Positions 1-64,000 of a stretch of 64,000 bases of DNA are shown here, piece by piece; within the stretch, counting starts at the first letter, position 1, and every line of letters starts with the position of its first letter. The notes beneath the pieces are model-generated. The model saw only the letters and a list, made by a program, of their open reading frames with translations. It ran no database searches and was not told the DNA's origin. The DNA comes from Haliotis asinina. Lineage: Eukaryota > Mollusca > Gastropoda > Lepetellida > Haliotidae. The stretch is from the NCBI RefSeq assembly GCF_037392515.1, contig NW_027133934.1, positions 1 through 64,000 of the forward strand, read 5' to 3'. Made by a program: the position numbers and the translations under genes.

Positions 1-89
1 GTTTCCAACTCAGTCAGATCCATGATGAGGTAAGGGCTGTGGTAATACTACGTTTGATTGTGTCAAATTGTCTCTTGTTCTGTGGAAGC

Positions 90-11600: not shown

Positions 11601-13000
11601 ACTGGCAACTAGTCTCTGAAATGAACATATTTTACAGTCAAAATCAGTTAGAAATCTAGACTTATTGGGCTTTCTTCTATATATTTGCTTCAGGGTGTGT
11701 ATGACAGACTATCATTGAGGGATAAAAACACAGACGGATGCAGGACAAATAGGGTTACTACTTTGTGAGTGAGTTAAACGCACCTTTAAAGAGTTCCAGT
11801 AGTGTTGTGAGGGAGAGGCTAGTGTGTTTCAACTTTGTCTCAATGTCGCAGAGCCATACCATTTTCCCTTCCATGCATCTTCATGCTTTGTTTGTTTGTT
11901 GTTAACGCCTCACTCAGCACTGTTCTAACCATATGCAGTGGTTTGTATATAAAAACCTGTGGAAAAGACAGTTCAGTGGTCAACAGCATGAGCATCAGTC
12001 TACACAGTTGGGATACGATGATGTGTCAACCAAGTGAGCCAGTCTGCCCCCCTGACCTTCTTAGTCATGACAAGCATGGGCTGCTGAAGACAAATTGTAG
12101 CTGGTATCTTCATGGGTGGCAGGTGGACAGAGAACCTGAAGAAATTTTGACTTACTTCATGTAGACTGTGCTAGGTCAAACAGATAATATTAATTGGACT
12201 GCAGGACAGACTTCCTTGGTATGTGCATTGTGCAATAGATCCGTTATAAAATGCTCAATTCACACCTTTTCATGCACAATGGCGCAGTTATTACTAACAT
12301 GTAACAGTGTGACTCATCAATGCTCGAAGAATCGTGCATTCTGCAAATGGTTCCCCAGTTATTCCTGATAAAACTCTCTGCTTCCTAATGGCCCATCTTG
12401 CATGGGGGGCAATGGGGCATCCTAATGGTTCCTCACACTACAGACAGAGGTTTGGTTCCCCACAAGGTTACAATATGTGAAGCCCATTTCAGTTGTCACC
12501 TATAGTGATATTGTTTGAATATTGCTAAAAGCAAGGTAAAACAATACTTACTCACTCACCCCCTCACAGTGACAATTTATGGGAGATCACACTATCAGAG
12601 AGGCTATATTGGTGACATTGACAAGGGAAGATGGAGGTCACTGGTAGGTGCGTTTGGGTGAGGTGTTTTGAACCTTGAACCATTGTAAAAGTGTCAAGCG
12701 CGTTTCAACTCAGTTTTGACGCAGACCGGAGGGTGACTTGGTATAAGTATTAAAAATTGTGCAGATACCTCATGATCAAACATTACCAAAGTAATGCTAT
12801 TATATGAATAGCTCTCTGTCTGGTGTCTTGCATGACAAGATATGTGGGCATCATTACAGCCATATGATTTAGTTTGGTTTGTTGTTTTACACCACATTCA
12901 GCAATGTTCCAGCTATATCATGGCAGTCTGTAAATAACTGAATCTGGACCAAACAATCCAGTGATCGACAGAATGACCATCAATTGGGATACGATGACAT

Positions 13001-15474: not shown

Positions 15475-15518
15475 GTTTCAACTCAGTCAGATCCATGATG
15501 AGGTAAGGTCTGTGGTAA

Positions 15519-22900: not shown

Positions 22901-25900
22901 AATGAAATCCCATCAACGTCATAGATGTACAATCTCACGATAATTGGAGTTGAACCATGTCCGATTGAAGTCCAGAGCATATATTTCATGTATCATCTGT
23001 GTCGCTGTTGCTAGGGCGAGCAGAAATAGAGTTTTCTGTGTCAATAATTCAAGCGATGTCCAGTCTAGTGGCTCGTAGATATCACTCATGAGGTGCTGTA
23101 GTACAACATTCAAATCCCAAGCCCAAGTCTTTATCTGCATTGTTGGTCTTCCAGCTTGAACAAGAGTAGTAAGGTGAGTAGTTCCCGTACTTTAGTCAGC
23201 TTGATCCCTGTTTTCATGGTGATAACAGAGCTGAGTGACACCAAGTATGTCAAGAATGTAGAACCTGTCAGTCCTCTGGTATGTCACAGATGACATAAGT
23301 AGTTCGCTACTTGAGGATGTGTGGTATTCGTTGCAGTGAAGCCTTTCTTCCTGGTGTATCTTTCAAACCACATCCGTTTATCATCGTAAGAGGTGCAGGT
23401 AGATCTATGTAGAGCTAAGATGGCTGCCTTTGCTGCTTCAGAAGAATATCCTCAATGTTTTAAGCAGGCTTTGATACAATCAAGACATGAAGCTGAAACG
23501 ATGTTGGATTGCCGGGCGCTTGTTTGGTGTGTGGATGGATGAGAAAGTTCCTCCACTCTGTCATTTGTAGTGTTGGTTGTCCTAGCTCCGTGATGAGTAC
23601 TGGGAACCAATCTCTTACAGCTTTCATCTCCAGGTGGTTGATATCTTTGATGCTCGTCCAGATTCCTGCAGCCACCCGCAGCACTACCTTATGACATGGA
23701 GATGGTTGTTGTAGACCATCTGTCTAGAATGGTTGTTGCTCTAGCAAATATGTCCCAGTGCTGACATTTGATCAGCAAGTCCACCATAGTAGATATGGTC
23801 TCAAGTTATCTGATCTGAGGTGCTGAGGTGTTGAATCAGGAACCGTTGTAATGGCCATAGTTGTAGATGCCCTCGTCTGGTCAAATCCTGCACCGAAATG
23901 AGCAGACCAAGTAGACACTGCCACTGTCATAGTGGTAACAGACAGAGTAAAGCTTGTTCTATCATGGCTTGAATTTTGACTCACGGCAGTTCAAAGGAGC
24001 GATAAATCGAATCCCAAGGATTTTAAGATCTTGTTGCAGCTCTAATTCTGACTTCAATAGATTCAAACCTTGTCTTGTTACTCATCTTACAGGTAAGAGC
24101 TTTGTTTGAGTTTCCCAACAGTGAGACGAGGTCAAACTCGTTTGTAATTCACAAAGTGATCTCTGAGTCAGAGAAGAGGGCTTCCTCCGGTGAGGATGAT
24201 AGGCAATTTCTATCCCTGTCCATTGAATCCTCTCTGTCCTTCCGCGAATGCATTCATGATGCAATGAATGTCAGCATGATCCTCCTGTCTGTGTGCATCC
24301 TTGGAATGTCTGTCATTCTGTGAATGCCTTCACGCATGCCTGCTCGAATCCACATCAAAAGGATGAACGATAATGGGTGCTCCGACGAATGGGGGATGCA
24401 GACGATGAACAATTGTGGCTGTAACAGGATCCATGCGTGTAAGCACATGGCATATCGATGGGAGGAGCTTTATTAAGACTTGAGAAAGCCTACGTTGTTT
24501 GTCATTCGCATGACTTTCAAGAGTATATAAATATAATGCAAATTCTGGATTCTTAATGCCTTATCGGGACCCAAAGTGCCTCTAACCATCCTCGTCGGGC
24601 GTTGAAGGAGAGAGTGACAAGCATGGCTGGTCATGTGACCATATTGGCATGAAAGGGAGGCTTCTGGTGGGTGAGTGTATTGTACATCTGCTTCAATTAG
24701 AAAAGAACTTCAATGGAATTTCAAGAGGGAGCAGATAAGCATAATAAGCATGACTAGGGATGAGGAAAAATAAATTAAGAACACAACTTCAAACCATACC
24801 TAAGTTATGAAGTTTTTGAAAACCCGTTTTTTTATCAGGGTATCGCACTACGTATCCATTTCACACATGTGCGACATTCCATCCAAATCTGTGCCCCAAG
24901 GGAAATCTCTACAAATTTTCTATTTGAAAAAAATATTTGTTATTTTTCTGCAATCAGTACCAACATGTCGGTACAAATGTATCACAGACACATCACGACC
25001 ATCACTGACCTCCATAAGCAGCTGATTGGGAGCCTTCCTGTCCTTATCCTCTTCCTCGGAGTCACTGTCATCACTACTCTCCCCCTTCCCACCAGCAGCT
25101 CCTGATCCACCATCTTGTTTACTCTCCAAGGTGACTTTTCTACAAACACAGTTCATGGTATCGGATCAGTGTTTGCAATACTTTAATTTGCCAGCTGGCC
25201 ATCAGGGCATGGTGCCTTTCAAATCTACAGGCCCTGAATGAAATCTGCAGGCGAATTTTGTTAAAGTCAAACCAATAAAAACAAAATACACTACACCATA
25301 CAGTTTCACATTGTATCTACAGAATCAATTTGCGACTACTATGGCGCAGAGAGAAGTCTGTATTTTCGTAAAAACTGGTGTTGCCATTGACAAATCATGG
25401 ATGTTAATACAAAAATTAGAAAGATTCTGGTTGACAGATAATTCACTGTAAGACATGAGGGCCTGTGCATATTTGAAACAGCCGTCCCAGTGCAATAACA
25501 ACCTGCACTGGGCATCTGGGCTGGTGATTTTCTTCGAATGCTGTATGGGATCACCGCAAATGAAAACAGTCATTGCATACAAAGATGGAGAGGTTTGGAG
25601 TAGGCTAAAAGATATCATGACAGGTTGCAGAGGAGGTGTTGTGAAAAATAATGACATTTTTGAGGAAGGGCATTAATGACAAATTAGAGTGAAAAAAGTG
25701 AATTAGAGTGAAAAGAACCAGAGATGGTAAGATGGTTAAATTGTTATTATTTCACTGCAGAGATCTGTGTGATGTACTCGATACACTGACAGTGCCACAA
25801 TCGGTTCCATTAGGCTACACCGCCGTTCCAAACCATGGATATACAGAATGTCAAGTTACAAGATTTCTCAGGTCAATATTGTGCATGGCCTCCCCGCGCA

Positions 25901-28900
25901 TTCACCTCTGCCAAACACCGTCTCCTCATCAACTGCCTGATGCTTGTGAACATGTGGTTGGGGATTCTGTGACATTGCTCTTGCAAGGCAGCACCAAGTT
26001 TCTGCAAGTTCTGGGGTTGTTTCCTAAGACCAGGATGCATCCCAAACGTGCTTTATTAGATTAAGGTCAGGTGGCCCCAATGGCCAGTCCATGATGTTGA
26101 TTCCAGCGTTTTGAAGGAAACTTCATCCCAACATCATGGTATGTGGCCAAGCATTATCATGCTGGAACTGTAGACCTGGGCCATGAACCGCCATGAAAGG
26201 AACGAGTTCTGGTGAGCATCTGGTCATGGTAAGCAGCAGCTGTGAGGTTTCCTCAGATGACCAGAAGGCGGGAACGGTTGTTCCCACAGAAAGCACCCTA
26301 CACAATGCAACTTCCACCCCCAAATCTGTCGACTTTCTGTACAACACATTGTGCATACCGTTCACAAAGACATACTGTCTGATGCTAAGTCAGCACTTTA
26401 TCAGAGGTATGGCCTACCTTCACAGAATCCCATACATGACTTTCATTTAGCATAGAACTAACATACACAGACATACAATTGAGACAATGATTACAAAATG
26501 GTATAAACATCTTACTTTGTTTCTTTGCTTTCTGTGCATCTGCCACTGGTTCCAGCTGTTTTTTCTTCATGGTGATGTGAGCAATCTGAACACATGTTTT
26601 TAGGAGTTTCAAGGCATGACAAAGTGAGAAAGTCAATACGGAGACAATACTATTTAGCTTGATAACTATGTAAAAATCTACATCAAAATGCTGCTCTATG
26701 CAATAAATAATAAGTTGTCATCAAGACAGTTGTATGTTTTATTTTTTACCTTTATAATCACAAATTGCAGAGATGATGAAGTGGATATCAATCCAACAGA
26801 CATATTGCTTTACCCACAGCAACTTCCCCTCCAACAACTCAGACAAAACTGTCTGCTGGCACTGAGTAAAAACTATGAGTGCACCACACGTGAAAAGGTT
26901 TTTACAAGATTTAATCTTTGGGATGGGGCTGCAACAGCCATAGTGACCACCTAATACACATCTTACACTAAGCATAGAGAGCTTTGGTTTGTGTCTGTAA
27001 CAAGAGATATGAAGGCTAGTAACTGCAGCATAACATACTGTGATGTCTGGATGAGTATGAGAAAGGTATGGATGACTGCTCTTGGGAAATGTTGTCTTTT
27101 TCTGCAACGTGTAGCTCCTGGAAGTTTTCTGTCAGAGAGCCATTCTTCCTATGAAGATAAATACACAAACAATTCTTAACTCATCTGGTAACAGAAAATC
27201 TTTTTATCAAAGCAGTGAAACAGATTAGGCAGAATACAACTGGCTTTCCTTGAGGTGCTTTGGTATCAGTCCTCCCAATGAGCATCAGTTACACTACTTA
27301 ATTCCCCTTGTTCCTATCCAGCAACTGCACTGCCTTCCAATCAACATCTCTTACACTACTTGGTGCCCTCTATTCCTATCCAGCAATTACATTGCCTTCC
27401 ATTCAACATCTGTTACACTACTTGGTGCCCTCTACTCTTATCCAGCAACTGTTCTGCCTTTCAGTCAACATAATTTACACTAATTACCTCCCTTTGTTCC
27501 CAGTTCTTAGAGTCTGTCTTTTCATGTACCGGTACGTCCATTTGGTTCTTCTCCTTGACTACTTCCTTGATTACAACACTGGCTACTCACTTATATCCCA
27601 TGGTCCTAAATCTGTGCCTGTACTTCCTTCTAACCAGCTTCAGCTGCTTCAGTTAACATCCTCTACCTCCCCTTGTTCATCTCTGGTATATTAATTCCTT
27701 CCAGTTGTGCTTAAATACTTACCTCCCCTTGTTCCTCCTCTGTGACTCTAATTCTTTCCAATCAACATCAGCTACAATAGGGTCATCTCTGTCAAAATAG
27801 ACATAATAAGACTTGATTGACCTACAAGTGGTATCAACATTATGTTTGATCATAATCGTGTAAGAATTATACATTTGGAAAACAGAATCAATATCTTGAA
27901 CTAGAGGTCTAGTATCTGAGAAACTCAAATGGATTCTTCAACTCAAAACTATTTCTCCAATGGCGTCAATGAGAAGATCTGGTCCTCCATTGACTGTGCT
28001 CTGAGACAACCAGGCTCTGTTTACCTTTCTTCTTTCCGTCTGACGGCCTGCAACGAAATCTGTTTAGTTGGTGTAGGTGTCCGTCGTGTGAGGGAGGAAT
28101 CTGGTCTTGGAGGAACAGAACCTGCATGGTTTCCACGTCTGTAAGTAACCATTTATCACTTTCAGTCATACTGAGTGTGTGATTTTATTAGTTTTATGCT
28201 GTACTCAGCAATGTTCCAGCTATAGACCGATTCTATCCTGTTCTTCAGTGGTCTCAGGGATACTGACAACATAATATGGCTGTTATGACAAATTCATCAT
28301 GATAGGATAACATTGTTCACTATACAGTAAATATCACATACACGCATTCTCATTCAGACGTATTGAAAGGAAACCTATTCTAAAATTATTTTTCATAAAT
28401 TCTCTTTTACAAATAATTTTGGCAAACTAAGACAGCAAATCTTGACTGAGTTCATGAACATGACAAACAGATAAAGGATTTCATATATATGAGTTACTTA
28501 CTTTAAATGGATCTGAATATTGGTAAAATATAAGTATTTTAGATATTTACATACTCACCTCTTATCATCATTATGCATACTTGCCTTACTCTTCGAAAAC
28601 AGACTGCAGAAGTCAAGATCTAAAGCTTGCTAACCTAACACTCACAAAGGTTATTCGATTGAAGACGTACAGATGACCAGCCTCTCATGTGGCCGCTTGG
28701 AAAAGTCATTCCTTTTGTTAAGAACGAAGGGTAGAATGATGACAGTGGGGAGGTACAGATGATTCAGGCGGGCTTCAGACTTGATGATAACAGGTAAGTA
28801 TGTAAATGTCTAAAATACTTACATTTTACCAAAGTTTGTACTAACCTCTTATCATCATTATATGCATCTTATCCGACAGCACTGGAAGGCGGGAAGCTCA

Positions 28901-35741: not shown

Positions 35742-37032
35742 CAGTATGGTTCAAAATTATTGAGAATAGCTAAAGCATTTCATATTATTAAACGAGAACA
35801 AATCAGATAAAATTGAATGTATTGTGAACGTGAACTGACCTTTTCATGTTGTGTAGGTAACAATTTAATATTTTATCAAGTCTCCTTGAGCTTCACGGCA
35901 CAGTCTAAGACGGGTAGGCATACTTCCTATCAGAGAGGTTAGTGTCTCGTGAGTTATGCTGTCCCAGTATCGGACCACTTCTCTCTTCATGTCTACAATT
36001 TTTGTCAACCCCTTTTGATTCACACATTCCTTCATCATCCCCCAAATGTTCTCAATGGGATTTAAGTCAGGACTATATGCAGGAAATGGTAATGCAGTCA
36101 CATTTTTCTCCTGAAACCACTGCTTGGCATGTTTTGCGGTGTGTTTAGGATCATTATCTTGCTGCAAAATCCAGTCATTTCCATAAAACACATGTGCACT
36201 TGGAAGGAGAAAATTATCTAATATGTTAGTGTAGCGTTGACTTGTCAGATTTCCCTCAAACACACACAGCGGGGTCGTTCCTAATAAGGATATCCCTCCC
36301 CATACATGAAACTTTGGGCTGTATTTAGGTCGTCGATACAACGGTACAGACTTTGTCCATATTTTCACATTATTGGGATATACCGATATTGAGCTTTCAT
36401 CAGTAAAAATCACATTTTCCCAGTCAAAGTTTTCATGTGCCAAACACCACTCAACACGCCTGTCTTTATGTTCTTGTTTCATGAGAGGAGAAGGAATTCC
36501 AGTCTTTTTCTCCCATCCAAGATCAATCAAATTTCTTCTAACTGTAGATTTTGATACAACTGTTGATCCCCTTTCTATCATTTCATACCTGATGTTGGAG
36601 ATGCTTGCCCTTTGCTTTTTAGACGCTAAAATTCCCAGCCGGACGCGATCTGAGAAGTCCAATTTTCTGGGTCTCCCTGCTCCTTTCTGGTGCCCAAAAT
36701 CCTTTCCCTCTTTAAAATTCTTCCTAATCCTATACACAGTAGAAAGAGGAGTTCCTGTTCTCTTTGCCAATGTATTTACATCATCAATTCCTTGATTACA
36801 CAACTCAAAAATCAACCTTCTTTTATCTCCAGCAGACATTGTTGACAGTGCTGAGGAAAATGACGTCTGCTACAAATTCAGGGGAGGTAACTCTAATTGT
36901 ACTATACTCAGTAGGCCAAGATGAGTTACCTCCCTTATACCATTACTTAGTTTTAAGTATCAGTGAATCAGTTGAGGTGTTAGGATAGCTCAAAGTAAGA
37001 AGAAAAATTCTCAATAATTATGAACCAGACTA
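35742..37032 (-). mobile_element. Complete-looking Tc1 (DD34E) transposon, 1291 bp
   Basis: The left end is CAGTATGGTTC then AAAATTATTGAGAAT. The right end, read on the other strand, is TAGTCTGGTTC then ATAATTATTGAGAAT, so the inverted repeats are about 26 bp with three mismatches. Both ends are flanked by TA (35740-35741 and 37033-37034), the Tc1 target duplication. One open transposase gene fills most of the element on the minus strand. Length, ends and coding content all fit an autonomous Tc1 element. Array 1 carries worn relatives of the same family. Confidence 0.93.
35865..36839 (-). CDS. Tc1 transposase (DD34E), 324 aa, open
   Basis: Cut-and-paste transposase that would bind the element's terminal repeats and insert at TA. 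N-terminal residues 1-45 form a helix-turn-helix (STVYRIRKNF at 33-42). A GRPR minor-groove motif lies at 55-58 and a second helix-turn-helix around 96-109 (SKSTVRRNLIDLGW). The catalytic residues are D147 (in FTDES), D228 (in LQQDNDPKH) and E263 (in SPDLNPIENIW), with 34 residues between the last two. The length is normal for the family, and no stop or frame break is seen. The ATG at 36839 opens the frame just inside the right inverted repeat. An intact frame implies recent arrival; activity cannot be judged from sequence. Confidence 0.93.
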   Translation of the reverse strand: MSAGDKRRLIFELCNQGIDDVNTLAKRTGTPLSTVYRIRKNFKEGKDFGHQKGAGRPRKLDFSDRVRLGILASKKQRASISNIRYEMIERGSTVVSKSTVRRNLIDLGWEKKTGIPSPLMKQEHKDRRVEWCLAHENFDWENVIFTDESSISVYPNNVKIWTKSVPLYRRPKYSPKFHVWGGISLLGTTPLCVFEGNLTSQRYTNILDNFLLPSAHVFYGNDWILQQDNDPKHTAKHAKQWFQEKNVTALPFPAYSPDLNPIENIWGMMKECVNQKGLTKIVDMKREVVRYWDSITHETLTSLIGSMPTRLRLCREAQGDLIKY

Positions 37033-43738: not shown

Positions 43739-43960
43739 TTAAGGATTGACTTTGTATTTCTTTCGTTGCATTGAAGTATGAAACTAAAAACCAAGGTGCA
43801 AACTTTTGTAAGAATCCGCGGATTCTTACAAAAGTTTGCACCTTGGTTTTTAGTTTCATACTTCAATACTTCAAGAATCCGCGGATTCTTACAAAAGTTT
43901 GCACCTTGGTTTTTAGTTTCATACTTCAATGCAACGAAAGAAATACAAAGTCAATCCTTA
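43739..43960. mobile_element. Perfect-arm palindromic foldback element with internal 63-bp duplication
   Basis: The left arm 43741-43818 (78 bp) is matched without mismatch by the inverted right arm 43882-43959. Between them, 63 bp repeat the centre: ccgcgg palindromes are centred at 43818/43819 and 43881/43882, so 43770-43867 is itself a 98-bp perfect palindrome. The left end starts at TTAA and the right end is followed by TTAT, suggesting a TTAA target. Because of the symmetry both strands carry open frames starting with the same peptide (MKYETKNQGANFCKNPRILT). Perfect arms point to a very recent origin or to conversion between arms. Confidence 0.9.
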
Positions 43961-49541: not shown

Positions 49542-49553
49542 GAGTTGAAACGA
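49542..49553. repeat. Target-site duplication, left copy
   Basis: gagttgaaacga, repeated exactly at 49777-49788 around the SINE. Only this first SINE of array 2 has both copies. Confidence 0.85.
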
Positions 49554-49776
49554 GCGAGTGAGTGAGTTTAGTTTTACGTCGCACTTAGCAATATTCCAGC
49601 TATATTTCGACGGTCTGTAAATAATCGAATCTGGACCAGACAATCCAGTGATCAACAACATGAGCATCGATCTGCGCAATGGGGAACCGATGACATGTGT
49701 CAACCAAGTCAGCTAGTCTGACCACCCGATCCCGTTAGTCGCCTCTTACGACAAGCATAGTCACCTTTTATGGCAA
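49554..49776 (+). mobile_element. SINE at the left edge of array 2 (original copy)
   Basis: Starts gagtgagtgagtttag and contains caatattccagctatattt, cagacaatccagtgatcaac, ccacccgatcccgttagtcg and tcttacgacaagcatag. Flanked on both sides by gagttgaaacga. It differs from the later copies only upstream of 49630 (ctatattt for ccatatgg; cgaatc for cgagtc). Confidence 0.93.
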
Positions 49777-49788
49777 GAGTTGAAACGA
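49777..49788. repeat. Target-site duplication, right copy
   Basis: Second gagttgaaacga. It is also present after every later SINE in the array (54390, 59003, 63616), without a left partner there. Confidence 0.85.
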
Positions 49789-49866
49789 ATAAAGTGATAA
49801 AGATATTAGTACACATAATAGAGTCAGTGAATTAGGATTGTTAAATATTCCTAATGTTTTCAGAGG

Positions 49867-49990
49867 ATGAGGAAAATAAGGAAACACCTTGTCTATGATG
49901 TTCTTCACAAAAGTGTGGTGACAGGATTGATCGGACTGACCGCAATAGGATGTGGACTGCTGACTTGGAGGGGTTACAGATACCTGACAT
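49867..49990 (+). CDS. COX14, copy 1, exon encoding the membrane segment
   Basis: COX14 is a small inner-membrane protein that helps translation and early assembly of mitochondrial COX1 (cytochrome c oxidase). The exon follows tgttttcag and ends ACAT|gtgagt. It encodes MRKIRKHLVYDVLHKSVVTG, LIGLTAIGCGLLTWRGYRYL, T. From VYDVLHKS to GYRYL it aligns without gaps to human COX14 as I remember it, sharing D, K, LT, G, R and the final Y-x-Y. Residues 15-34 form one membrane helix with basic residues on both sides and no cleavable presequence. The 80-residue protein is longer than the human 57. The ATG may be the start or may continue from 47440-47486. Confidence 0.75.
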
Positions 49991-50435
49991 GTGAGTAACC
50001 TGCAGTGCTCCACTTTATACAAACTATGTAAGCATCAAACTGAATCTCTTTAGTAGTTACAGATTTTTTAAATAGTCCTTTTTCTTGTGTATCTGGATAC
50101 CTGGCCAAACTGCTTCACTCAGTAAATGAAGAGACATGCCCTCAGTCATGTTGACTACATCTTTCTTCCCTTGATATTCAGACATAAACTGCATAAGGGC
50201 AAAAAGTAGAAATCCAGTAAGAAGACAAAGATCTTTAGTTGAACACTTATGCTACCAGTGCATATAAGTAACAGCAACACGTAAATCATTATGAAACTTG
50301 ACCTCGTTGCATGTATGCATGTGAACAAGAATTAGACTTCAACATTTGCATGTTTACACCAAATGTAGAGTTATTGGTAAAGTTTTACACAGAACAGAAA
50401 AAGAAGAAGAGGAATTTGGGGTATTTCTTTTGCAG

Positions 50436-50554
50436 ATGTTCGGCCGCTTCAGTTGGAAAGGAAACGGATGCTGGCTGAAGAACAGATGAGGATGGAGCAG
50501 AATGAAAAGGAGGCGGAGCTGCTACGACGTCAGAAAGAGGCTGAAGCTCTGTAG
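50436..50554 (+). CDS. COX14, copy 1, last exon
   Basis: Acceptor ttcttttgcag. The split codon gives Tyr, then VRPLQLERKRMLAEEQMRME, QNEKEAELLRRQKEAEAL and TAG at 50552-50554. The charged, helical tail (probable coiled coil) corresponds to the short RRAQRQAAEEQ tail of human COX14 but is extended. A plus-strand AATAAA at 51138 is a possible poly(A) signal. The antisense frame at 50385-50567 is a shadow. Confidence 0.75.
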
Positions 50555-50599
50555 AGAATAAGAACATCTGAAAGTGTGATAAAAAATTGTAAAAAGACT

Positions 50600-53500
50600 C
50601 TCCCTAGTCTGAACGGTGATGCAACATGACCTAAAAGAATAACAACCAAGAAGACCATACTGTACAGGCGTTAAACAGCAGAACATCTGGCTTGATTTGA
50701 TTTAGACCTATGGACAAGATTGTAATTCTTCAAGATGACAAGAGGAGTCCATTTTTGTAACAACCTGCATGTTTGTTAAATGCTGAAAATGTCAAAATAA
50801 TGCATTTAGGGGAGGGCATTAGTTTTTAATGTTGGGTTACACACTTACTTACCCTAATCTCATCAACATGGATAACAAATGAATTGAACTCTTATTTGCA
50901 TATAGAAATATTTCAGAATGACTAAATGTTATGAAGGAAATCATTAACATCAGTACAGTGTGCAGCTTCACTTTTCGCAAAGTTGACAACTCATATTTTG
51001 TTTGTGATTCTGTCTTATGACCCCATCCCTGTCCCTGACACACAGGCCCATCAAAATATTCCTCTTATTCATCCTCAAATTACTGCAGATGCTGGCCAAT
51101 GGCGACTTGCTGTTTTTTCCAACTCCCTGATCCAACAAATAAAACATATAGATCTTTTGGGTTTCATTTCTATAATTAGGTTTGTATAAGTTTTGTCAGG
51201 TCAAGGATCTGGAATGTGTGGACATTGTGTATGTAATGGTTTGAATGCTAGTGATAAACGGAAATCACATGCGAGGAACAGGCACAGAAGAACCTGTTTC
51301 TACATGTTATAGTATCAGTGTGTCAGTGCTGCTGTATATGTGAATGTTCAGGAAGGATTAAACTTTTCATCATACTGTAGAAGTTGTCTGTCAGTCTGTG
51401 TTAACCATGTCATGATCACAAATAATGGTAATTTAAGACCTTTTTGCTGTGAGCTACTGAAGTACAGGATATGAAAAATCTATAGAGTTTTATGACAAAT
51501 TTGTTCAGTGATGGCAAGACGAAAATACAACATAAGGGTTTTTGCTTGATGTAGATAAACATACAGGCCACTGAACAATACATGGCAATGTGTAATAGCA
51601 TAAAATTGGGTTGACCTGATGACGCTGAGTGTTATCATCTCTTTTCTTTTGAATTTGAACAAGAAACAAACTTAGACATTTTAAAATATTAACATTTTCA
51701 GTGATTCTGTTTAATGATTTTTTTTTCTAAATTACATGAAAATCATTCACTTCTTGACATCACAGCATCATCACAATATCATGTTTAGTACAAAGGTTAT
51801 CTTGAAAGACTGTTTAAGCGTACCTGACCTGATAGTCAGTTTTTACATTATGAACATAGATATATGTTTCCTTTGACACTCAGGTTTGCAGTATATTGGG
51901 GTGGTGGTGTTGGTGTTCCTGTGTGAAGTGATGACTCCAACTGTGAGGCTTACGAACATACAGTCAGCTCTCATCTATCCGACACTCAATTCGACAATCA
52001 CGTTAATCCAACCAAAAACTATTACAATGAGAATTGTGTCCATCCACAAAGCTCCAAAAAGGTGCATATTTACTTAAAAAACAAATCACATTTACTCAAT
52101 TAATTACAATTATGAGAGTACAAAAACATACAAGAATCACTTCAAACCCAGTAGGTATATACAACCTTTTGCACTTGACTCAATTAACTGAACTGGCTTG
52201 CATATGATAATTTATTGCGGCACCCAAACTCTACACCAGCATTAGCAAATGTTAAGTGATGCCTATAAAAACATACACTATTACAGCGGTAGTTACATGA
52301 CTTCCATGTTGAGTGTTTCAAAAAGGTTGGCAACTGTTTGTCAACACAAGAATTACTAAAAACTCAGGCCTACTGAGAAGCATGTATATTTATATATTAC
52401 AAAGTGTTAATTACCCCATATGGGTAAGAAACTCTGAGTAAACATACTCAATTCTTTAAACTAGTGGGAGAATACAAAATGCTAGTTACTCCTCAAAAAA
52501 TGCAATTACTTATAACTAAACGGACATGGGAGTAACTACCCTATTGCTTGAAAAATTATCTGGAGCTCAGGATCCAGATCTCTCTCCAGTTGGCAAGAAA
52601 ATGTTCAGTCAGTCAAAACCAAAACACTAAAGAAAATATTTAAAAGGTTCAACTGGTACACTGTATAGACTTCAGGCTTGACCCATCCATGTTAAAACAA
52701 ATGTAAAGTCACAATCTGTAGGTCACAAGTACATGTACAACTAAAAGAGTGCAATAGCTGTGCTTGAAGATGTGCGCGAATGGTATGTAAAAGAATTGGA
52801 AAACTTCTTAGATTTGCTCATCCATAGTTTGAAGATGTTTTACAGGTATTTACAGTTTCGTTTTCTCCAATCTCCCCCTGATATTTGGAACATTAATGTA
52901 TTATCAAATTAATAGTAGTGTGGTTATCTTAAGTAATTAGAAACGAACTAGATGGCATGGCAAGATTTTTACCTGATATCACGATTTGACAAAAGTAACC
53001 ACACATCAAGCGAGAGGCTTGTAAGTTCCCTCAATCATCAAGTAATATGGCTTTATCCCCCTTCTAGCAATATTCCAGAAATATCACAGAAGGGGACACA
53101 GAAATGCTCCATAACCAAGGACTGTGTGGTGAGTACGAACTATTTCATAGGTACTGGGATGTAAAATAGAACAATTGTTACCCATATTTCAGAGGGATCG
53201 AACATGTAAACTTTGTACCTGCAGGTAAATACCTAATTACCAAACGAGAGATGCTAATAATCCCATATGTTTTTTACGTCTGCTTCATAAAGTACCTAGA
53301 GAGCATGTTGAAAAAAGAAAGTTTGTTATTAATGATGCAGATTTTTTACTCAGCTGATTAGAAAAATAGCTTGGTCCAGGGGTTAAAAATGCAAAGGTAG
53401 GGGTTGGCCATTACAGGGTTTACAGTTGTCTGGATGCTGCGTAAGCTCTATCACCCCGCAGAATCTCCTTAAATTCATTTTAAAACAGTATACTATGAAG

Positions 53501-54160
53501 TATAACTGAATAAGTTTTCCTTAGGCTTAGCTGAACAAATCAAACCTTGATAAACTTGTGAGTTAATTTACGTCATACTCACAATAGTGTATACCAAACA
53601 GAATTTTGTACACCATAACAGGCAAGCACACACACACTTCTCTCCTCTAAATATGGGTTGTTTCTTAATGAAAGGCAACAAACAAGAAACACTTACTCTC
53701 ATCATGTATTTATATTTTATTGCATCACAACAGTTATTGAGGAGTGACAGTTCCAATGATACACAAATGTTGTCATATTCGCCCTGGAGATGTGTTGACA
53801 ACAGCACCACTGATCACACAAGCACAATGATACACACACATCCTTGTCTCTCACACTAATTAATGGTAGATAATAACGTGCATGACCATAATGAGGCTCA
53901 GATCATAGAAAATAAACTTTGTACTAATCTAGATAACAAATCTACAACAAAAATATCATACATCAATTTCATAATCATGGCTTACAGCCATTATTTTAAC
54001 ATGCGTTTTATGAACACCATATCATTGCATTACATTAAACAGACATGACTGATGTCACTGAATATTTTAGATATTGCCTCAACTTCTTTGTACCAATGAA
54101 TGTGTAACTACCCCATTTCTGTAGGACCAGAATTTGTTCAGGGTGTTTCTTGTGAGGAAA
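50600..54160. other. Non-coding body of array-2 unit 1
   Basis: AT-rich; no further exon recognised. Near 51958-52010, ctctcatctatccgacactc and ttaatccaac resemble worn pogo/Tigger end sequences but no partner was found. 53047-53130 is a reversed SINE tail. The whole stretch repeats at +4613 and +9226. Confidence 0.6.
53047..53130 (-). mobile_element. Reversed SINE tail inside the array-2 unit
   Basis: tttatcccccttctagcaat, attccagaaatatcac and aaggggacacagaaatg are the minus-strand form of the tail seen at 2090-2150. Copies at +4613 and +9226. Confidence 0.6.
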
Positions 54161-54163
54161 AGG

Positions 54164-54389
54164 TGAGTGAGTGAGTGAGTTTAGTTTTACGTCGCACTTA
54201 GCAATATTCCAGCCATATGGCGACGGTCTGTAAATAATCGAGTCTGGACCAGACAATCCAGTGATCAACAACATGAGCATCGATCTGCGCAATGGGGAAC
54301 CGATGACATGTGTCAACCAAGTCAGCTAGTCTGACCACCCGATCCCGTTAGTCGCCTCTTACGACAAGCATAGTCACCTTTTATGGCAA
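54164..54389 (+). mobile_element. Hybrid SINE at junction of array-2 units 1 and 2
   Basis: Left flank cttgtgaggaaaag, right flank gagttgaaacga: the flanks are not duplications of each other. The first half has the ccatatgg and cgagtc variants; the second half matches the copy at 49554. This is a recombinant between two SINEs. Confidence 0.9.
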
Positions 54390-54479
54390 GAGTTGAAACG
54401 AATAAAGTGATAAAGATATTAGTACACATAATAGAGTCAGTGAATTAGGATTGTTAAATATTCCTAATGTTTTCAGAGG

Positions 54480-54603
54480 ATGAGGAAAATAAGGAAACAC
54501 CTTGTCTATGATGTTCTTCACAAAAGTGTGGTGACAGGATTGATCGGACTGACCGCAATAGGATGTGGACTGCTGACTTGGAGGGGTTACAGATACCTGA
54601 CAT
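54480..54603 (+). CDS. COX14, copy 2, membrane-segment exon
   Basis: By eye identical to 49867-49990 with the same acceptor and donor. No copy of the candidate first exon (47440-47486) lies upstream within the unit. Confidence 0.7.
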
Positions 54604-55048
54604 GTGAGTAACCTGCAGTGCTCCACTTTATACAAACTATGTAAGCATCAAACTGAATCTCTTTAGTAGTTACAGATTTTTTAAATAGTCCTTTTTCTTG
54701 TGTATCTGGATACCTGGCCAAACTGCTTCACTCAGTAAATGAAGAGACATGCCCTCAGTCATGTTGACTACATCTTTCTTCCCTTGATATTCAGACATAA
54801 ACTGCATAAGGGCAAAAAGTAGAAATCCAGTAAGAAGACAAAGATCTTTAGTTGAACACTTATGCTACCAGTGCATATAAGTAACAGCAACACGTAAATC
54901 ATTATGAAACTTGACCTCGTTGCATGTATGCATGTGAACAAGAATTAGACTTCAACATTTGCATGTTTACACCAAATGTAGAGTTATTGGTAAAGTTTTA
55001 CACAGAACAGAAAAAGAAGAAGAGGAATTTGGGGTATTTCTTTTGCAG

Positions 55049-55167
55049 ATGTTCGGCCGCTTCAGTTGGAAAGGAAACGGATGCTGGCTGAAGAACAGAT
55101 GAGGATGGAGCAGAATGAAAAGGAGGCGGAGCTGCTACGACGTCAGAAAGAGGCTGAAGCTCTGTAG
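55049..55167 (+). CDS. COX14, copy 2, last exon
   Basis: By eye identical to 50436-50554, including acceptor and TAG stop. Confidence 0.7.
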
Positions 55168-58100
55168 AGAATAAGAACATCTGAAAGTGTGATAAAAAAT
55201 TGTAAAAAGACTCTCCCTAGTCTGAACGGTGATGCAACATGACCTAAAAGAATAACAACCAAGAAGACCATACTGTACAGGCGTTAAACAGCAGAACATC
55301 TGGCTTGATTTGATTTAGACCTATGGACAAGATTGTAATTCTTCAAGATGACAAGAGGAGTCCATTTTTGTAACAACCTGCATGTTTGTTAAATGCTGAA
55401 AATGTCAAAATAATGCATTTAGGGGAGGGCATTAGTTTTTAATGTTGGGTTACACACTTACTTACCCTAATCTCATCAACATGGATAACAAATGAATTGA
55501 ACTCTTATTTGCATATAGAAATATTTCAGAATGACTAAATGTTATGAAGGAAATCATTAACATCAGTACAGTGTGCAGCTTCACTTTTCGCAAAGTTGAC
55601 AACTCATATTTTGTTTGTGATTCTGTCTTATGACCCCATCCCTGTCCCTGACACACAGGCCCATCAAAATATTCCTCTTATTCATCCTCAAATTACTGCA
55701 GATGCTGGCCAATGGCGACTTGCTGTTTTTTCCAACTCCCTGATCCAACAAATAAAACATATAGATCTTTTGGGTTTCATTTCTATAATTAGGTTTGTAT
55801 AAGTTTTGTCAGGTCAAGGATCTGGAATGTGTGGACATTGTGTATGTAATGGTTTGAATGCTAGTGATAAACGGAAATCACATGCGAGGAACAGGCACAG
55901 AAGAACCTGTTTCTACATGTTATAGTATCAGTGTGTCAGTGCTGCTGTATATGTGAATGTTCAGGAAGGATTAAACTTTTCATCATACTGTAGAAGTTGT
56001 CTGTCAGTCTGTGTTAACCATGTCATGATCACAAATAATGGTAATTTAAGACCTTTTTGCTGTGAGCTACTGAAGTACAGGATATGAAAAATCTATAGAG
56101 TTTTATGACAAATTTGTTCAGTGATGGCAAGACGAAAATACAACATAAGGGTTTTTGCTTGATGTAGATAAACATACAGGCCACTGAACAATACATGGCA
56201 ATGTGTAATAGCATAAAATTGGGTTGACCTGATGACGCTGAGTGTTATCATCTCTTTTCTTTTGAATTTGAACAAGAAACAAACTTAGACATTTTAAAAT
56301 ATTAACATTTTCAGTGATTCTGTTTAATGATTTTTTTTTCTAAATTACATGAAAATCATTCACTTCTTGACATCACAGCATCATCACAATATCATGTTTA
56401 GTACAAAGGTTATCTTGAAAGACTGTTTAAGCGTACCTGACCTGATAGTCAGTTTTTACATTATGAACATAGATATATGTTTCCTTTGACACTCAGGTTT
56501 GCAGTATATTGGGGTGGTGGTGTTGGTGTTCCTGTGTGAAGTGATGACTCCAACTGTGAGGCTTACGAACATACAGTCAGCTCTCATCTATCCGACACTC
56601 AATTCGACAATCACGTTAATCCAACCAAAAACTATTACAATGAGAATTGTGTCCATCCACAAAGCTCCAAAAAGGTGCATATTTACTTAAAAAACAAATC
56701 ACATTTACTCAATTAATTACAATTATGAGAGTACAAAAACATACAAGAATCACTTCAAACCCAGTAGGTATATACAACCTTTTGCACTTGACTCAATTAA
56801 CTGAACTGGCTTGCATATGATAATTTATTGCGGCACCCAAACTCTACACCAGCATTAGCAAATGTTAAGTGATGCCTATAAAAACATACACTATTACAGC
56901 GGTAGTTACATGACTTCCATGTTGAGTGTTTCAAAAAGGTTGGCAACTGTTTGTCAACACAAGAATTACTAAAAACTCAGGCCTACTGAGAAGCATGTAT
57001 ATTTATATATTACAAAGTGTTAATTACCCCATATGGGTAAGAAACTCTGAGTAAACATACTCAATTCTTTAAACTAGTGGGAGAATACAAAATGCTAGTT
57101 ACTCCTCAAAAAATGCAATTACTTATAACTAAACGGACATGGGAGTAACTACCCTATTGCTTGAAAAATTATCTGGAGCTCAGGATCCAGATCTCTCTCC
57201 AGTTGGCAAGAAAATGTTCAGTCAGTCAAAACCAAAACACTAAAGAAAATATTTAAAAGGTTCAACTGGTACACTGTATAGACTTCAGGCTTGACCCATC
57301 CATGTTAAAACAAATGTAAAGTCACAATCTGTAGGTCACAAGTACATGTACAACTAAAAGAGTGCAATAGCTGTGCTTGAAGATGTGCGCGAATGGTATG
57401 TAAAAGAATTGGAAAACTTCTTAGATTTGCTCATCCATAGTTTGAAGATGTTTTACAGGTATTTACAGTTTCGTTTTCTCCAATCTCCCCCTGATATTTG
57501 GAACATTAATGTATTATCAAATTAATAGTAGTGTGGTTATCTTAAGTAATTAGAAACGAACTAGATGGCATGGCAAGATTTTTACCTGATATCACGATTT
57601 GACAAAAGTAACCACACATCAAGCGAGAGGCTTGTAAGTTCCCTCAATCATCAAGTAATATGGCTTTATCCCCCTTCTAGCAATATTCCAGAAATATCAC
57701 AGAAGGGGACACAGAAATGCTCCATAACCAAGGACTGTGTGGTGAGTACGAACTATTTCATAGGTACTGGGATGTAAAATAGAACAATTGTTACCCATAT
57801 TTCAGAGGGATCGAACATGTAAACTTTGTACCTGCAGGTAAATACCTAATTACCAAACGAGAGATGCTAATAATCCCATATGTTTTTTACGTCTGCTTCA
57901 TAAAGTACCTAGAGAGCATGTTGAAAAAAGAAAGTTTGTTATTAATGATGCAGATTTTTTACTCAGCTGATTAGAAAAATAGCTTGGTCCAGGGGTTAAA
58001 AATGCAAAGGTAGGGGTTGGCCATTACAGGGTTTACAGTTGTCTGGATGCTGCGTAAGCTCTATCACCCCGCAGAATCTCCTTAAATTCATTTTAAAACA

Positions 58101-58776
58101 GTATACTATGAAGTATAACTGAATAAGTTTTCCTTAGGCTTAGCTGAACAAATCAAACCTTGATAAACTTGTGAGTTAATTTACGTCATACTCACAATAG
58201 TGTATACCAAACAGAATTTTGTACACCATAACAGGCAAGCACACACACACTTCTCTCCTCTAAATATGGGTTGTTTCTTAATGAAAGGCAACAAACAAGA
58301 AACACTTACTCTCATCATGTATTTATATTTTATTGCATCACAACAGTTATTGAGGAGTGACAGTTCCAATGATACACAAATGTTGTCATATTCGCCCTGG
58401 AGATGTGTTGACAACAGCACCACTGATCACACAAGCACAATGATACACACACATCCTTGTCTCTCACACTAATTAATGGTAGATAATAACGTGCATGACC
58501 ATAATGAGGCTCAGATCATAGAAAATAAACTTTGTACTAATCTAGATAACAAATCTACAACAAAAATATCATACATCAATTTCATAATCATGGCTTACAG
58601 CCATTATTTTAACATGCGTTTTATGAACACCATATCATTGCATTACATTAAACAGACATGACTGATGTCACTGAATATTTTAGATATTGCCTCAACTTCT
58701 TTGTACCAATGAATGTGTAACTACCCCATTTCTGTAGGACCAGAATTTGTTCAGGGTGTTTCTTGTGAGGAAAAGG

Positions 58777-59002
58777 TGAGTGAGTGAGTGAGTTTAGTTT
58801 TACGTCGCACTTAGCAATATTCCAGCCATATGGCGACGGTCTGTAAATAATCGAGTCTGGACCAGACAATCCAGTGATCAACAACATGAGCATCGATCTG
58901 CGCAATGGGGAACCGATGACATGTGTCAACCAAGTCAGCTAGTCTGACCACCCGATCCCGTTAGTCGCCTCTTACGACAAGCATAGTCACCTTTTATGGC
59001 AA
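58777..59002 (+). mobile_element. Hybrid SINE at junction of array-2 units 2 and 3
   Basis: Same hybrid variants and mismatched flanks as the copy at 54164. Confidence 0.9.
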
Positions 59003-59092
59003 GAGTTGAAACGAATAAAGTGATAAAGATATTAGTACACATAATAGAGTCAGTGAATTAGGATTGTTAAATATTCCTAATGTTTTCAGAGG

Positions 59093-59216
59093 ATGAGGAA
59101 AATAAGGAAACACCTTGTCTATGATGTTCTTCACAAAAGTGTGGTGACAGGATTGATCGGACTGACCGCAATAGGATGTGGACTGCTGACTTGGAGGGGT
59201 TACAGATACCTGACAT
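59093..59216 (+). CDS. COX14, copy 3, membrane-segment exon
   Basis: By eye identical to copies 1 and 2. Confidence 0.7.
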
Positions 59217-59661
59217 GTGAGTAACCTGCAGTGCTCCACTTTATACAAACTATGTAAGCATCAAACTGAATCTCTTTAGTAGTTACAGATTTTTTAAATA
59301 GTCCTTTTTCTTGTGTATCTGGATACCTGGCCAAACTGCTTCACTCAGTAAATGAAGAGACATGCCCTCAGTCATGTTGACTACATCTTTCTTCCCTTGA
59401 TATTCAGACATAAACTGCATAAGGGCAAAAAGTAGAAATCCAGTAAGAAGACAAAGATCTTTAGTTGAACACTTATGCTACCAGTGCATATAAGTAACAG
59501 CAACACGTAAATCATTATGAAACTTGACCTCGTTGCATGTATGCATGTGAACAAGAATTAGACTTCAACATTTGCATGTTTACACCAAATGTAGAGTTAT
59601 TGGTAAAGTTTTACACAGAACAGAAAAAGAAGAAGAGGAATTTGGGGTATTTCTTTTGCAG

Positions 59662-59780
59662 ATGTTCGGCCGCTTCAGTTGGAAAGGAAACGGATGCTGG
59701 CTGAAGAACAGATGAGGATGGAGCAGAATGAAAAGGAGGCGGAGCTGCTACGACGTCAGAAAGAGGCTGAAGCTCTGTAG
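59662..59780 (+). CDS. COX14, copy 3, last exon
   Basis: By eye identical to copies 1 and 2, ending in TAG. Confidence 0.7.
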
Positions 59781-62700
59781 AGAATAAGAACATCTGAAAG
59801 TGTGATAAAAAATTGTAAAAAGACTCTCCCTAGTCTGAACGGTGATGCAACATGACCTAAAAGAATAACAACCAAGAAGACCATACTGTACAGGCGTTAA
59901 ACAGCAGAACATCTGGCTTGATTTGATTTAGACCTATGGACAAGATTGTAATTCTTCAAGATGACAAGAGGAGTCCATTTTTGTAACAACCTGCATGTTT
60001 GTTAAATGCTGAAAATGTCAAAATAATGCATTTAGGGGAGGGCATTAGTTTTTAATGTTGGGTTACACACTTACTTACCCTAATCTCATCAACATGGATA
60101 ACAAATGAATTGAACTCTTATTTGCATATAGAAATATTTCAGAATGACTAAATGTTATGAAGGAAATCATTAACATCAGTACAGTGTGCAGCTTCACTTT
60201 TCGCAAAGTTGACAACTCATATTTTGTTTGTGATTCTGTCTTATGACCCCATCCCTGTCCCTGACACACAGGCCCATCAAAATATTCCTCTTATTCATCC
60301 TCAAATTACTGCAGATGCTGGCCAATGGCGACTTGCTGTTTTTTCCAACTCCCTGATCCAACAAATAAAACATATAGATCTTTTGGGTTTCATTTCTATA
60401 ATTAGGTTTGTATAAGTTTTGTCAGGTCAAGGATCTGGAATGTGTGGACATTGTGTATGTAATGGTTTGAATGCTAGTGATAAACGGAAATCACATGCGA
60501 GGAACAGGCACAGAAGAACCTGTTTCTACATGTTATAGTATCAGTGTGTCAGTGCTGCTGTATATGTGAATGTTCAGGAAGGATTAAACTTTTCATCATA
60601 CTGTAGAAGTTGTCTGTCAGTCTGTGTTAACCATGTCATGATCACAAATAATGGTAATTTAAGACCTTTTTGCTGTGAGCTACTGAAGTACAGGATATGA
60701 AAAATCTATAGAGTTTTATGACAAATTTGTTCAGTGATGGCAAGACGAAAATACAACATAAGGGTTTTTGCTTGATGTAGATAAACATACAGGCCACTGA
60801 ACAATACATGGCAATGTGTAATAGCATAAAATTGGGTTGACCTGATGACGCTGAGTGTTATCATCTCTTTTCTTTTGAATTTGAACAAGAAACAAACTTA
60901 GACATTTTAAAATATTAACATTTTCAGTGATTCTGTTTAATGATTTTTTTTTCTAAATTACATGAAAATCATTCACTTCTTGACATCACAGCATCATCAC
61001 AATATCATGTTTAGTACAAAGGTTATCTTGAAAGACTGTTTAAGCGTACCTGACCTGATAGTCAGTTTTTACATTATGAACATAGATATATGTTTCCTTT
61101 GACACTCAGGTTTGCAGTATATTGGGGTGGTGGTGTTGGTGTTCCTGTGTGAAGTGATGACTCCAACTGTGAGGCTTACGAACATACAGTCAGCTCTCAT
61201 CTATCCGACACTCAATTCGACAATCACGTTAATCCAACCAAAAACTATTACAATGAGAATTGTGTCCATCCACAAAGCTCCAAAAAGGTGCATATTTACT
61301 TAAAAAACAAATCACATTTACTCAATTAATTACAATTATGAGAGTACAAAAACATACAAGAATCACTTCAAACCCAGTAGGTATATACAACCTTTTGCAC
61401 TTGACTCAATTAACTGAACTGGCTTGCATATGATAATTTATTGCGGCACCCAAACTCTACACCAGCATTAGCAAATGTTAAGTGATGCCTATAAAAACAT
61501 ACACTATTACAGCGGTAGTTACATGACTTCCATGTTGAGTGTTTCAAAAAGGTTGGCAACTGTTTGTCAACACAAGAATTACTAAAAACTCAGGCCTACT
61601 GAGAAGCATGTATATTTATATATTACAAAGTGTTAATTACCCCATATGGGTAAGAAACTCTGAGTAAACATACTCAATTCTTTAAACTAGTGGGAGAATA
61701 CAAAATGCTAGTTACTCCTCAAAAAATGCAATTACTTATAACTAAACGGACATGGGAGTAACTACCCTATTGCTTGAAAAATTATCTGGAGCTCAGGATC
61801 CAGATCTCTCTCCAGTTGGCAAGAAAATGTTCAGTCAGTCAAAACCAAAACACTAAAGAAAATATTTAAAAGGTTCAACTGGTACACTGTATAGACTTCA
61901 GGCTTGACCCATCCATGTTAAAACAAATGTAAAGTCACAATCTGTAGGTCACAAGTACATGTACAACTAAAAGAGTGCAATAGCTGTGCTTGAAGATGTG
62001 CGCGAATGGTATGTAAAAGAATTGGAAAACTTCTTAGATTTGCTCATCCATAGTTTGAAGATGTTTTACAGGTATTTACAGTTTCGTTTTCTCCAATCTC
62101 CCCCTGATATTTGGAACATTAATGTATTATCAAATTAATAGTAGTGTGGTTATCTTAAGTAATTAGAAACGAACTAGATGGCATGGCAAGATTTTTACCT
62201 GATATCACGATTTGACAAAAGTAACCACACATCAAGCGAGAGGCTTGTAAGTTCCCTCAATCATCAAGTAATATGGCTTTATCCCCCTTCTAGCAATATT
62301 CCAGAAATATCACAGAAGGGGACACAGAAATGCTCCATAACCAAGGACTGTGTGGTGAGTACGAACTATTTCATAGGTACTGGGATGTAAAATAGAACAA
62401 TTGTTACCCATATTTCAGAGGGATCGAACATGTAAACTTTGTACCTGCAGGTAAATACCTAATTACCAAACGAGAGATGCTAATAATCCCATATGTTTTT
62501 TACGTCTGCTTCATAAAGTACCTAGAGAGCATGTTGAAAAAAGAAAGTTTGTTATTAATGATGCAGATTTTTTACTCAGCTGATTAGAAAAATAGCTTGG
62601 TCCAGGGGTTAAAAATGCAAAGGTAGGGGTTGGCCATTACAGGGTTTACAGTTGTCTGGATGCTGCGTAAGCTCTATCACCCCGCAGAATCTCCTTAAAT

Positions 62701-63389
62701 TCATTTTAAAACAGTATACTATGAAGTATAACTGAATAAGTTTTCCTTAGGCTTAGCTGAACAAATCAAACCTTGATAAACTTGTGAGTTAATTTACGTC
62801 ATACTCACAATAGTGTATACCAAACAGAATTTTGTACACCATAACAGGCAAGCACACACACACTTCTCTCCTCTAAATATGGGTTGTTTCTTAATGAAAG
62901 GCAACAAACAAGAAACACTTACTCTCATCATGTATTTATATTTTATTGCATCACAACAGTTATTGAGGAGTGACAGTTCCAATGATACACAAATGTTGTC
63001 ATATTCGCCCTGGAGATGTGTTGACAACAGCACCACTGATCACACAAGCACAATGATACACACACATCCTTGTCTCTCACACTAATTAATGGTAGATAAT
63101 AACGTGCATGACCATAATGAGGCTCAGATCATAGAAAATAAACTTTGTACTAATCTAGATAACAAATCTACAACAAAAATATCATACATCAATTTCATAA
63201 TCATGGCTTACAGCCATTATTTTAACATGCGTTTTATGAACACCATATCATTGCATTACATTAAACAGACATGACTGATGTCACTGAATATTTTAGATAT
63301 TGCCTCAACTTCTTTGTACCAATGAATGTGTAACTACCCCATTTCTGTAGGACCAGAATTTGTTCAGGGTGTTTCTTGTGAGGAAAAGG

Positions 63390-63615
63390 TGAGTGAGTGA
63401 GTGAGTTTAGTTTTACGTCGCACTTAGCAATATTCCAGCCATATGGCGACGGTCTGTAAATAATCGAGTCTGGACCAGACAATCCAGTGATCAACAACAT
63501 GAGCATCGATCTGCGCAATGGGGAACCGATGACATGTGTCAACCAAGTCAGCTAGTCTGACCACCCGATCCCGTTAGTCGCCTCTTACGACAAGCATAGT
63601 CACCTTTTATGGCAA
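63390..63615 (+). mobile_element. Hybrid SINE at junction of array-2 units 3 and 4
   Basis: Same hybrid variants and mismatched flanks as the copies at 54164 and 58777. Confidence 0.9.
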
Positions 63616-63705
63616 GAGTTGAAACGAATAAAGTGATAAAGATATTAGTACACATAATAGAGTCAGTGAATTAGGATTGTTAAATATTCCTAATGTTTTC
63701 AGAGG

Positions 63706-63829
63706 ATGAGGAAAATAAGGAAACACCTTGTCTATGATGTTCTTCACAAAAGTGTGGTGACAGGATTGATCGGACTGACCGCAATAGGATGTGGACTGCT
63801 GACTTGGAGGGGTTACAGATACCTGACAT
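63706..63829 (+). CDS. COX14, copy 4, membrane-segment exon (gene cut by window end)
   Basis: By eye identical to the other copies. Its last exon would begin near 64275, outside the window. Confidence 0.68.
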
Positions 63830-64000
63830 GTGAGTAACCTGCAGTGCTCCACTTTATACAAACTATGTAAGCATCAAACTGAATCTCTTTAGTAGTTACA
63901 GATTTTTTAAATAGTCCTTTTTCTTGTGTATCTGGATACCTGGCCAAACTGCTTCACTCAGTAAATGAAGAGACATGCCCTCAGTCATGTTGACTACATC

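What the first reader, a model, noticed from the sequence alone, without database searches (positions are those of the whole stretch)
49542..64000. SINE-to-SINE unequal crossing-over amplified COX14 exons
The first SINE (49554-49776) has a perfect 12-bp target duplication (gagttgaaacga at 49542 and 49777). The SINEs at 54164, 58777 and 63390 keep only the right copy; their left flank is cttgtgaggaaaag, and their first halves carry different variants (ccatatgg, cgagtc). Each junction SINE is therefore front-of-right-SINE fused to back-of-left-SINE, with the exchange between 49630 and 49776. This is a direct footprint of non-allelic homologous recombination between same-strand SINEs that turned a 4.6-kb segment holding two COX14 exons into a tandem array.
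Basis: partly seen in the sequence, partly recalled or inferred. Interest (0 to 1): 0.8.

Follow-up and report, generated by a model that had tools for sequence, protein, structure and literature searches.

The report
SINE-mediated tandem duplication of COX14
In one of two haplotypes of what looks like an abalone genome, a 4.6-kb piece carrying a small mitochondrial assembly gene became a tandem array, most likely after two copies of a short repeat recombined; the assembly also keeps an unexpanded version for comparison, but the mechanism itself is a familiar one.

Summary
Exact 4,613-bp units run from the first SINE-like element to the contig's end at 65,284: three complete, a fourth partial. 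Three junction elements (54164, 58777, 63390) are chimeras: front and left flank from one site, back and right flank from SINE1.

The window is C61, a 65-kb contig apparently allelic to C10:5.62-5.68 Mb. C10 has the unexpanded allele: SINE1, one unit, and an empty site where the junction elements start. SINE1 is therefore shared; a second insertion (SINE2) is inferred on the C61 lineage. One homologous SINE2-SINE1 exchange best explains the first duplication; later growth needs only unit-unit exchange.

The unit holds a complete two-exon COX14 CDS (80 aa). An apparent splice acceptor just upstream suggests that promoter and 5' exon lie outside it (inferred).

Intact SINE2 and the array's right end are absent from this assembly, so a one-step, retrotransposition-coupled origin, a segmental duplicate or an artefact remain possible.

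The kind is well known (Alu/Alu NAHR); the before/after pair is the attraction.

The parts
49542..49553 (+). left target-site duplication of SINE1 (gagttgaaacga)
   Evidence: exact match to 49777-49788; on C10 this copy reads gagttgaaacaa
49554..49776 (.). SINE1, SINE-like element, short form ending in ggcaa on the plus strand; shared by both haplotypes. Its own transcribed strand is probably the minus strand
   Evidence: C10:5670977-5671200 aligns to the family member here; 35 further copies examined; orientation
49777..49788 (+). right target-site duplication of SINE1; left edge of unit 1
49777..54163 (+). repeat unit 1 (4,387 bp without the element); the period with the element is 4,613 bp
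   Evidence: identical to units 2 and 3; 1 SNP and 2 small indels against C10
49867..49990 (+). COX14 coding exon 1, unit 1 (ATG at 49867; apparent splice acceptor ttttcag at 49857-49863; donor gtgagt from 49991)
   Evidence: PF14880 41.1 bits; sequence; spliced frame
50436..50554 (+). COX14 coding exon 2 with stop, unit 1
   Evidence: spliced 80-aa protein scores 53.4 bits against PF14880, cut-off 25
49630..49776 (.). interval in which the SINE exchange must lie (147 bp, SINE1 coordinates)
54149..54163 (+). left flank of the first hybrid element; equals the C10 sequence just left of the empty site (the G at 54163 may belong to flank or element)
54164..54389 (.). hybrid element 1: front of the inferred SINE2, back of SINE1
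54390..58776 (+). repeat unit 2, with COX14 exons starting at 54480 and 55049
58777..59002 (.). hybrid element 2, identical to hybrid 1
59003..63389 (+). repeat unit 3, with COX14 exons starting at 59093 and 59662
63390..63615 (.). hybrid element 3, identical to hybrid 1
63616..64000 (+). start of partial unit 4 with COX14 exon 1 at 63706; the contig continues to 65,284 (1,669 bp of unit in all, identical to unit 1, exon 2 included)

Best explanation
Two-step origin on one haplotype. First, a second copy of the same SINE-like family (SINE2) inserted, in the same orientation as SINE1, at the site that is still empty on C10 (5,675,593), about 4.4 kb downstream of SINE1. Second, a homologous exchange between SINE2 and SINE1 (between sister chromatids or near-identical homologues) fused SINE2's front to SINE1's back and duplicated the 4.6-kb segment between them. 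Once two units existed, ordinary unit-unit unequal exchange raised the copy number to at least three complete units plus a partial fourth. Shown: the hybrid, the array as assembled, the empty site, the shared SINE1. Inferred: an intact SINE2, the kind of exchange (crossover, break-induced replication or single-strand annealing), the order of the later steps. Each unit has a complete COX14 CDS, but the apparent splice acceptor ending about 87 bp after SINE1 suggests that the promoter and 5' exon were left outside, so the extra copies are probably poorly or not expressed (inference).
For: Base-exact flank swap at three junctions and identical hybrids. The exchange is in register: the hybrid aligns to C10's SINE1 over 224 bases without a gap. 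The hybrid front carries the family state at three sites where SINE1 has rare ones. The C10 allele has SINE1 and one unit and is empty where the hybrid begins; the empty site was found once, and its left flank once on C10 and three times on C61. The family is a target-duplicating retroposon. COX14 model.
Against: No intact SINE2 and no right end of the array were found in the assembly. The only unexpanded allele at hand lacks SINE2. No site in 49630-49776 separates SINE1 from an ordinary family member (L034 matches 147 of 147), so the length of the exchange tract is unknown. The side of SINE2 that is kept is the side that target-primed reverse transcription would make first if the element lies on the minus strand, which the one-step rival predicts. 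Exact identity of units is also what an assembler's consensus could produce; no reads were available.
Confidence: 0.74

Rival explanations
1. One-step, retrotransposition-coupled template switch: while SINE2 was being reverse-transcribed at the empty site, the growing strand (left flank plus SINE2 front) invaded SINE1 4.4 kb upstream and was extended on that template, so that the insertion itself made the duplication and no intact SINE2 ever existed.
For: The element probably lies on the minus strand: a tetranucleotide run of variable length (a tail) is at its plus-strand front, truncated copies lose the other end, and paired A- and B-box patterns occur on the minus strand in 9 of 35 copies and on the plus strand in 0 of 35. 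Target-primed synthesis would then begin exactly at the left flank of the hybrid. No SINE2 is seen in the unexpanded allele or elsewhere.
Against: Needs an unusual intermediate; ordinary insertion followed by NAHR needs only known common steps. The orientation evidence is indirect: ARAGORN found no tRNA in five copies, and Rfam gave only chance-level matches on one.
Confidence: 0.13
2. Assembly artefact: the unit number, or the whole array, comes from an assembler walking a cycle or from chimeric reads.
For: Small contig ending inside the array; units without a single difference.
Against: The junction (an element with a different front on the C10 right-hand flank) does not exist on C10 and cannot be made by looping the C10 allele, which has no second element there; a 0.2-kb repeat is too short to cause a loop if long reads were used (general knowledge; the platform is unknown). 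Copy number is less secure than the junction.
Confidence: 0.08
3. C61 is a paralogous segmental duplication, not an allele of C10.
For: C61 is a separate small contig; the stretch 20-27.5 kb is 0.7-2.1% divergent while the other bins are at 0-0.3%.
Against: The single-copy part (15-54 kb) is collinear with C10 in three blocks of 99.26, 99.78 and 99.77%; both contig ends fall inside arrays, which explains stranding; the full unit and the empty site have no third place.
Confidence: 0.05

Closest known systems
Alu/Alu-mediated rearrangements in humans (TE-mediated rearrangements by homologous recombination; PMC9675761, passages seen)
   Same: Same-orientation elements, exchange in register, chimeric element at the junction, duplication of the interval
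   Different: A different repeat family in a probable mollusc; here the product went on to an array of more than three units, and the empty site of one parent element survives on the other haplotype
Model of tandem gene duplication between haplotypes by unequal crossing over at transposons, Acropora corals (PMC12314368, passages seen)
   Same: Transposon copies 5' and 3' of a gene, possibly on different haplotypes, mispair and duplicate the gene; duplicates then drive further NAHR
   Different: In the passages seen it is offered as a model; here the hybrid element and an unexpanded allele are read at base level
Yeast CUP1 arrays (PMC4232551, title and start of abstract in a search listing only)
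   Same: Single-copy and tandem-array forms of a small gene exist within a species
   Different: The title attributes those arrays to nonhomologous recombination; here the junction lies within homologous elements

Membership tests
SINE-mediated NAHR duplication | chimeric element at the junction with flanks of two loci | tested here: met
SINE-mediated NAHR duplication | exchange at homologous positions, same orientation | tested here: met
   hybrid aligns without gap to C10's SINE1 over 224 bases; tandem direct units
SINE-mediated NAHR duplication | both parent elements present on an unrearranged chromosome | tested here: inconclusive
   C10 has SINE1 but an empty site for SINE2; no other unrearranged chromosome is available
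SINE | dispersed short element with target-site duplications | tested here: met
   26 of 35 copies against 27 of 1,190 mismatched pairs
SINE | internal Pol III promoter (A and B boxes) or small-RNA head | tested here: inconclusive
   suitably spaced A- and B-box patterns on the minus strand in 9 of 35 copies, plus strand 0 of 35; 7 of 2,000 shuffles of one copy have such a pair. No tRNA by ARAGORN in 5 copies tried; no Rfam match at gathering score in the window and only chance-level ones on one copy. 'SINE-like' is the safe name
SINE | 3' tail shared with a partner LINE | not tested
   not tried
COX14 | match to PF14880 over the curated cut-off, complete CDS | tested here: met
   53.4 bits, cut-off 25; ATG to stop, 243 nt
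COX14 | expression and assembly function of each copy | not testable with these tools
   no RNA data

The most novel reading that the evidence does not exclude
The duplication was made in one step by the SINE2 insertion itself: the strand growing from the nicked target (left flank plus SINE2 tail and front) switched to the neighbouring SINE1 and was extended there, so that retrotransposition directly founded a gene array and no intact SINE2 ever existed.
Probability: 0.13. Interest if true: 0.7.

Novelty: new member of a known kind. Interest (0 to 1): 0.38.

Why it matters
It appears to catch the founding of a gene array in a probable abalone, with an unexpanded empty-site haplotype and the hybrid-element array in one assembly. 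That makes the model 'transposon insertion, then mispairing, then array' directly testable in relatives and populations, and it points to a COX14 copy-number polymorphism that removal of alternative haplotypes from assemblies would hide.

Tried and rejected
Reading past the contig to the last SINE: impossible, the contig ends at 65,284; the C10 right flank and the empty site were found on C10 only, and the full unit on C10 and C61 only. A single insertion with a 4.6-kb target duplication: rejected because the right side of every hybrid is SINE1's own back half and flank. Narrowing the exchange inside 49630-49776: no SINE1-private site there. Dating by unit divergence: only 1 SNP and 2 small indels separate a C61 unit from C10, so zero differences among units say only 'recent or homogenised'. 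Naming the element: Rfam on the window at gathering score gave 0 matches, on one copy only chance-level ones; ARAGORN found 0 tRNA genes in 5 of 35 copies tried. My first reading of the short forms as internally primed was dropped: with the element on the minus strand they are ordinary 5' truncations. Literature: searches listed no paper recognisable from title or start of abstract as describing this locus; only passages of PMC12314368 and PMC9675761 were seen.
Full report
What the sequence shows. From 49542 the window holds a SINE-like element (SINE1) with an exact 12-bp target duplication, followed by a 4,387-bp unit. After the unit the sequence reads cttgtgaggaaaag and then another element of the same family, whose right flank is again SINE1's right flank. 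The period is 4,613 bp. Comparing the contig with itself at that offset gives no difference from 49630 to the contig end (11,042 compared positions). Units 1-3 and the three junction elements are identical. The contig, C61, is only 65,284 bp long, so the array is three full units plus 1,669 bp of a fourth, and it is cut by the contig end.

The unexpanded allele. C61 aligns collinearly with C10:5.62-5.68 Mb. The 15-54 kb part falls into three blocks of 99.26, 99.78 and 99.77% identity. In 2.5-kb bins the difference is 0-0.3%, except for a patch of 0.7-2.1% between 20 and 27.5 kb. C10 has SINE1 (aligned part 5,670,977-5,671,200), one unit, and then, where the hybrid element starts on C61, plain sequence without an element. 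The left flank of the junction is found without mismatch on C10 once and on C61 three times, with one further one-mismatch place on C3. The empty site is found once, on C10. The unit at full length was found only on C10 and C61; 36 further listed matches cover only a dispersed repeat inside it (40 candidates scored of 1,292). I read C61 as the other haplotype, stranded because both its ends lie about 15.5 kb inside tandem arrays: a 2.6-kb array on the left (17 complete copies and partial ones in the C10 stretch fetched) and this one on the right. That read length set these ends is my inference.

The element. Thirty-five other genomic copies were fetched (20, 15). They come from the 41 places listed, a capped list (40 candidates scored of 548); the five matches from this locus and a neighbouring partial match on C14 were left out. 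Two of the 35 (L066, L067) are one duplicated locus. 26 of 35 have a target duplication of at least 11 bp by my search; pairing left and right flanks of different copies gives 27 of 1,190. So the family is retroposed. Its own orientation is probably the minus strand: the tetranucleotide run at the plus-strand front varies in length like a 3' tail (2 to 6 full units among the copies; the pattern mis-scored L035 and L041 and could not score L064), truncated copies lose the other end, and spaced A- and B-box patterns occur on the minus strand in 9 of 35 copies and on the plus strand in 0 of 35. No tRNA gene was found by ARAGORN in the five copies tried, so I call it SINE-like.

The exchange. Within 49557-49776 the hybrid and SINE1 differ at 49601, 49606, 49607 and 49629. 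At the last three the hybrid has the family's commonest state and SINE1 a rare one; at 49601 the hybrid is rare (C in 2 of 35). SINE1 on C10 has the same four states as SINE1 on C61, so these changes are likely to predate the split of the haplotypes. After 49629 the hybrid equals SINE1, but another copy (L034) does too at 147 of 147 sites, so the exchange lies somewhere in 49630-49776 and cannot be narrowed. The hybrid aligns with C10's SINE1 without a gap, as homologous exchange demands.

Mechanism. The simplest history is insertion of SINE2 at the C10-type empty site, one homologous SINE2-SINE1 exchange, then copy-number growth by unit-unit exchange. C61 keeps SINE1 at its left, so in this history the left-hand parent carried SINE1 and SINE2; the right-hand parent needed only SINE1. 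Units 1 and 2 are identical although C10 and C61 units differ by 1 SNP and two small indels. This leans weakly to a sister-chromatid or same-haplotype exchange, or to later homogenisation. A one-step origin would give the same hybrid: if the element lies on the minus strand, target-primed synthesis of SINE2 would begin at the very left flank that the hybrid keeps, and the growing strand could have switched to SINE1. Because no intact SINE2 is known, this is not excluded.

The gene. Each unit has two exons that splice to an 80-aa protein scoring 53.4 bits against Pfam COX14, cut-off 25. The search of the assembly shows five places for the first exon: one on C10 and four on C61. Both exons are the same on C10 and C61. 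The ATG at 49867 is preceded by ttttcag and agg, an apparent splice acceptor, which suggests a 5' exon and promoter upstream of SINE1, outside the repeated unit. The array thus multiplies coding exons and probably not the promoter; no RNA evidence was available.

Organism. The genome has six matches to Pfam Egg_lysin, all on C14, and a piece of one exon matches solved sperm lysins at up to 46 bits. That these lysins are abalone proteins is recalled. The species was not identified.

Known or new. Rearrangements by recombination between same-orientation elements, with chimeric elements at the junction, are described in humans (PMC9675761, passages), and the haplotype-mispairing model has been proposed for coral gene arrays (PMC12314368, passages). 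This is a new and unusually well preserved case, not a new kind.

Noticed in passing
1-15518: A 2,600-bp tandem array without Rfam match at gathering score; the C10 stretch fetched has 17 complete copies and partial ones, and the array reaches its left edge at 5,590,001. On C10 the units carry two diverged pieces of the same SINE-like family in the same orientation (about 74% and 80% identity) and a short third one in the other.
   Followed up: partly
L040, L046, L056 and window 49554-49776: Short-form elements end at ggcaa, well before the usual end of the other copies, and are followed at once by the target duplication, which in 4 of 4 begins with GA, the two bases with which many longer copies continue. 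With the element on the minus strand these are 5' truncations with a 2-base microhomology.
   Followed up: partly
20000-27500: A patch of 0.7-2.1% divergence between the haplotypes amid 0-0.3% elsewhere.
   Followed up: no
52063-52568: A dispersed repeat of about 500 bp inside each unit, with 36 further places listed in the genome at 72-78% identity (capped list).
   Followed up: no
L066 and L067 (C5:35693676 and C5:35574072): Two copies of the element 120 kb apart with identical printed flanks, suggesting a segmental duplication.
   Followed up: no
35868-36869: An open frame of 334 aa on the minus strand that looks like a mariner/Tc1-type transposase (recalled likeness, not searched).
   Followed up: no
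43810-43930: A 63-bp tandem repeat (1.9 copies, 100% matches) at which the C61-C10 alignment breaks.
   Followed up: no
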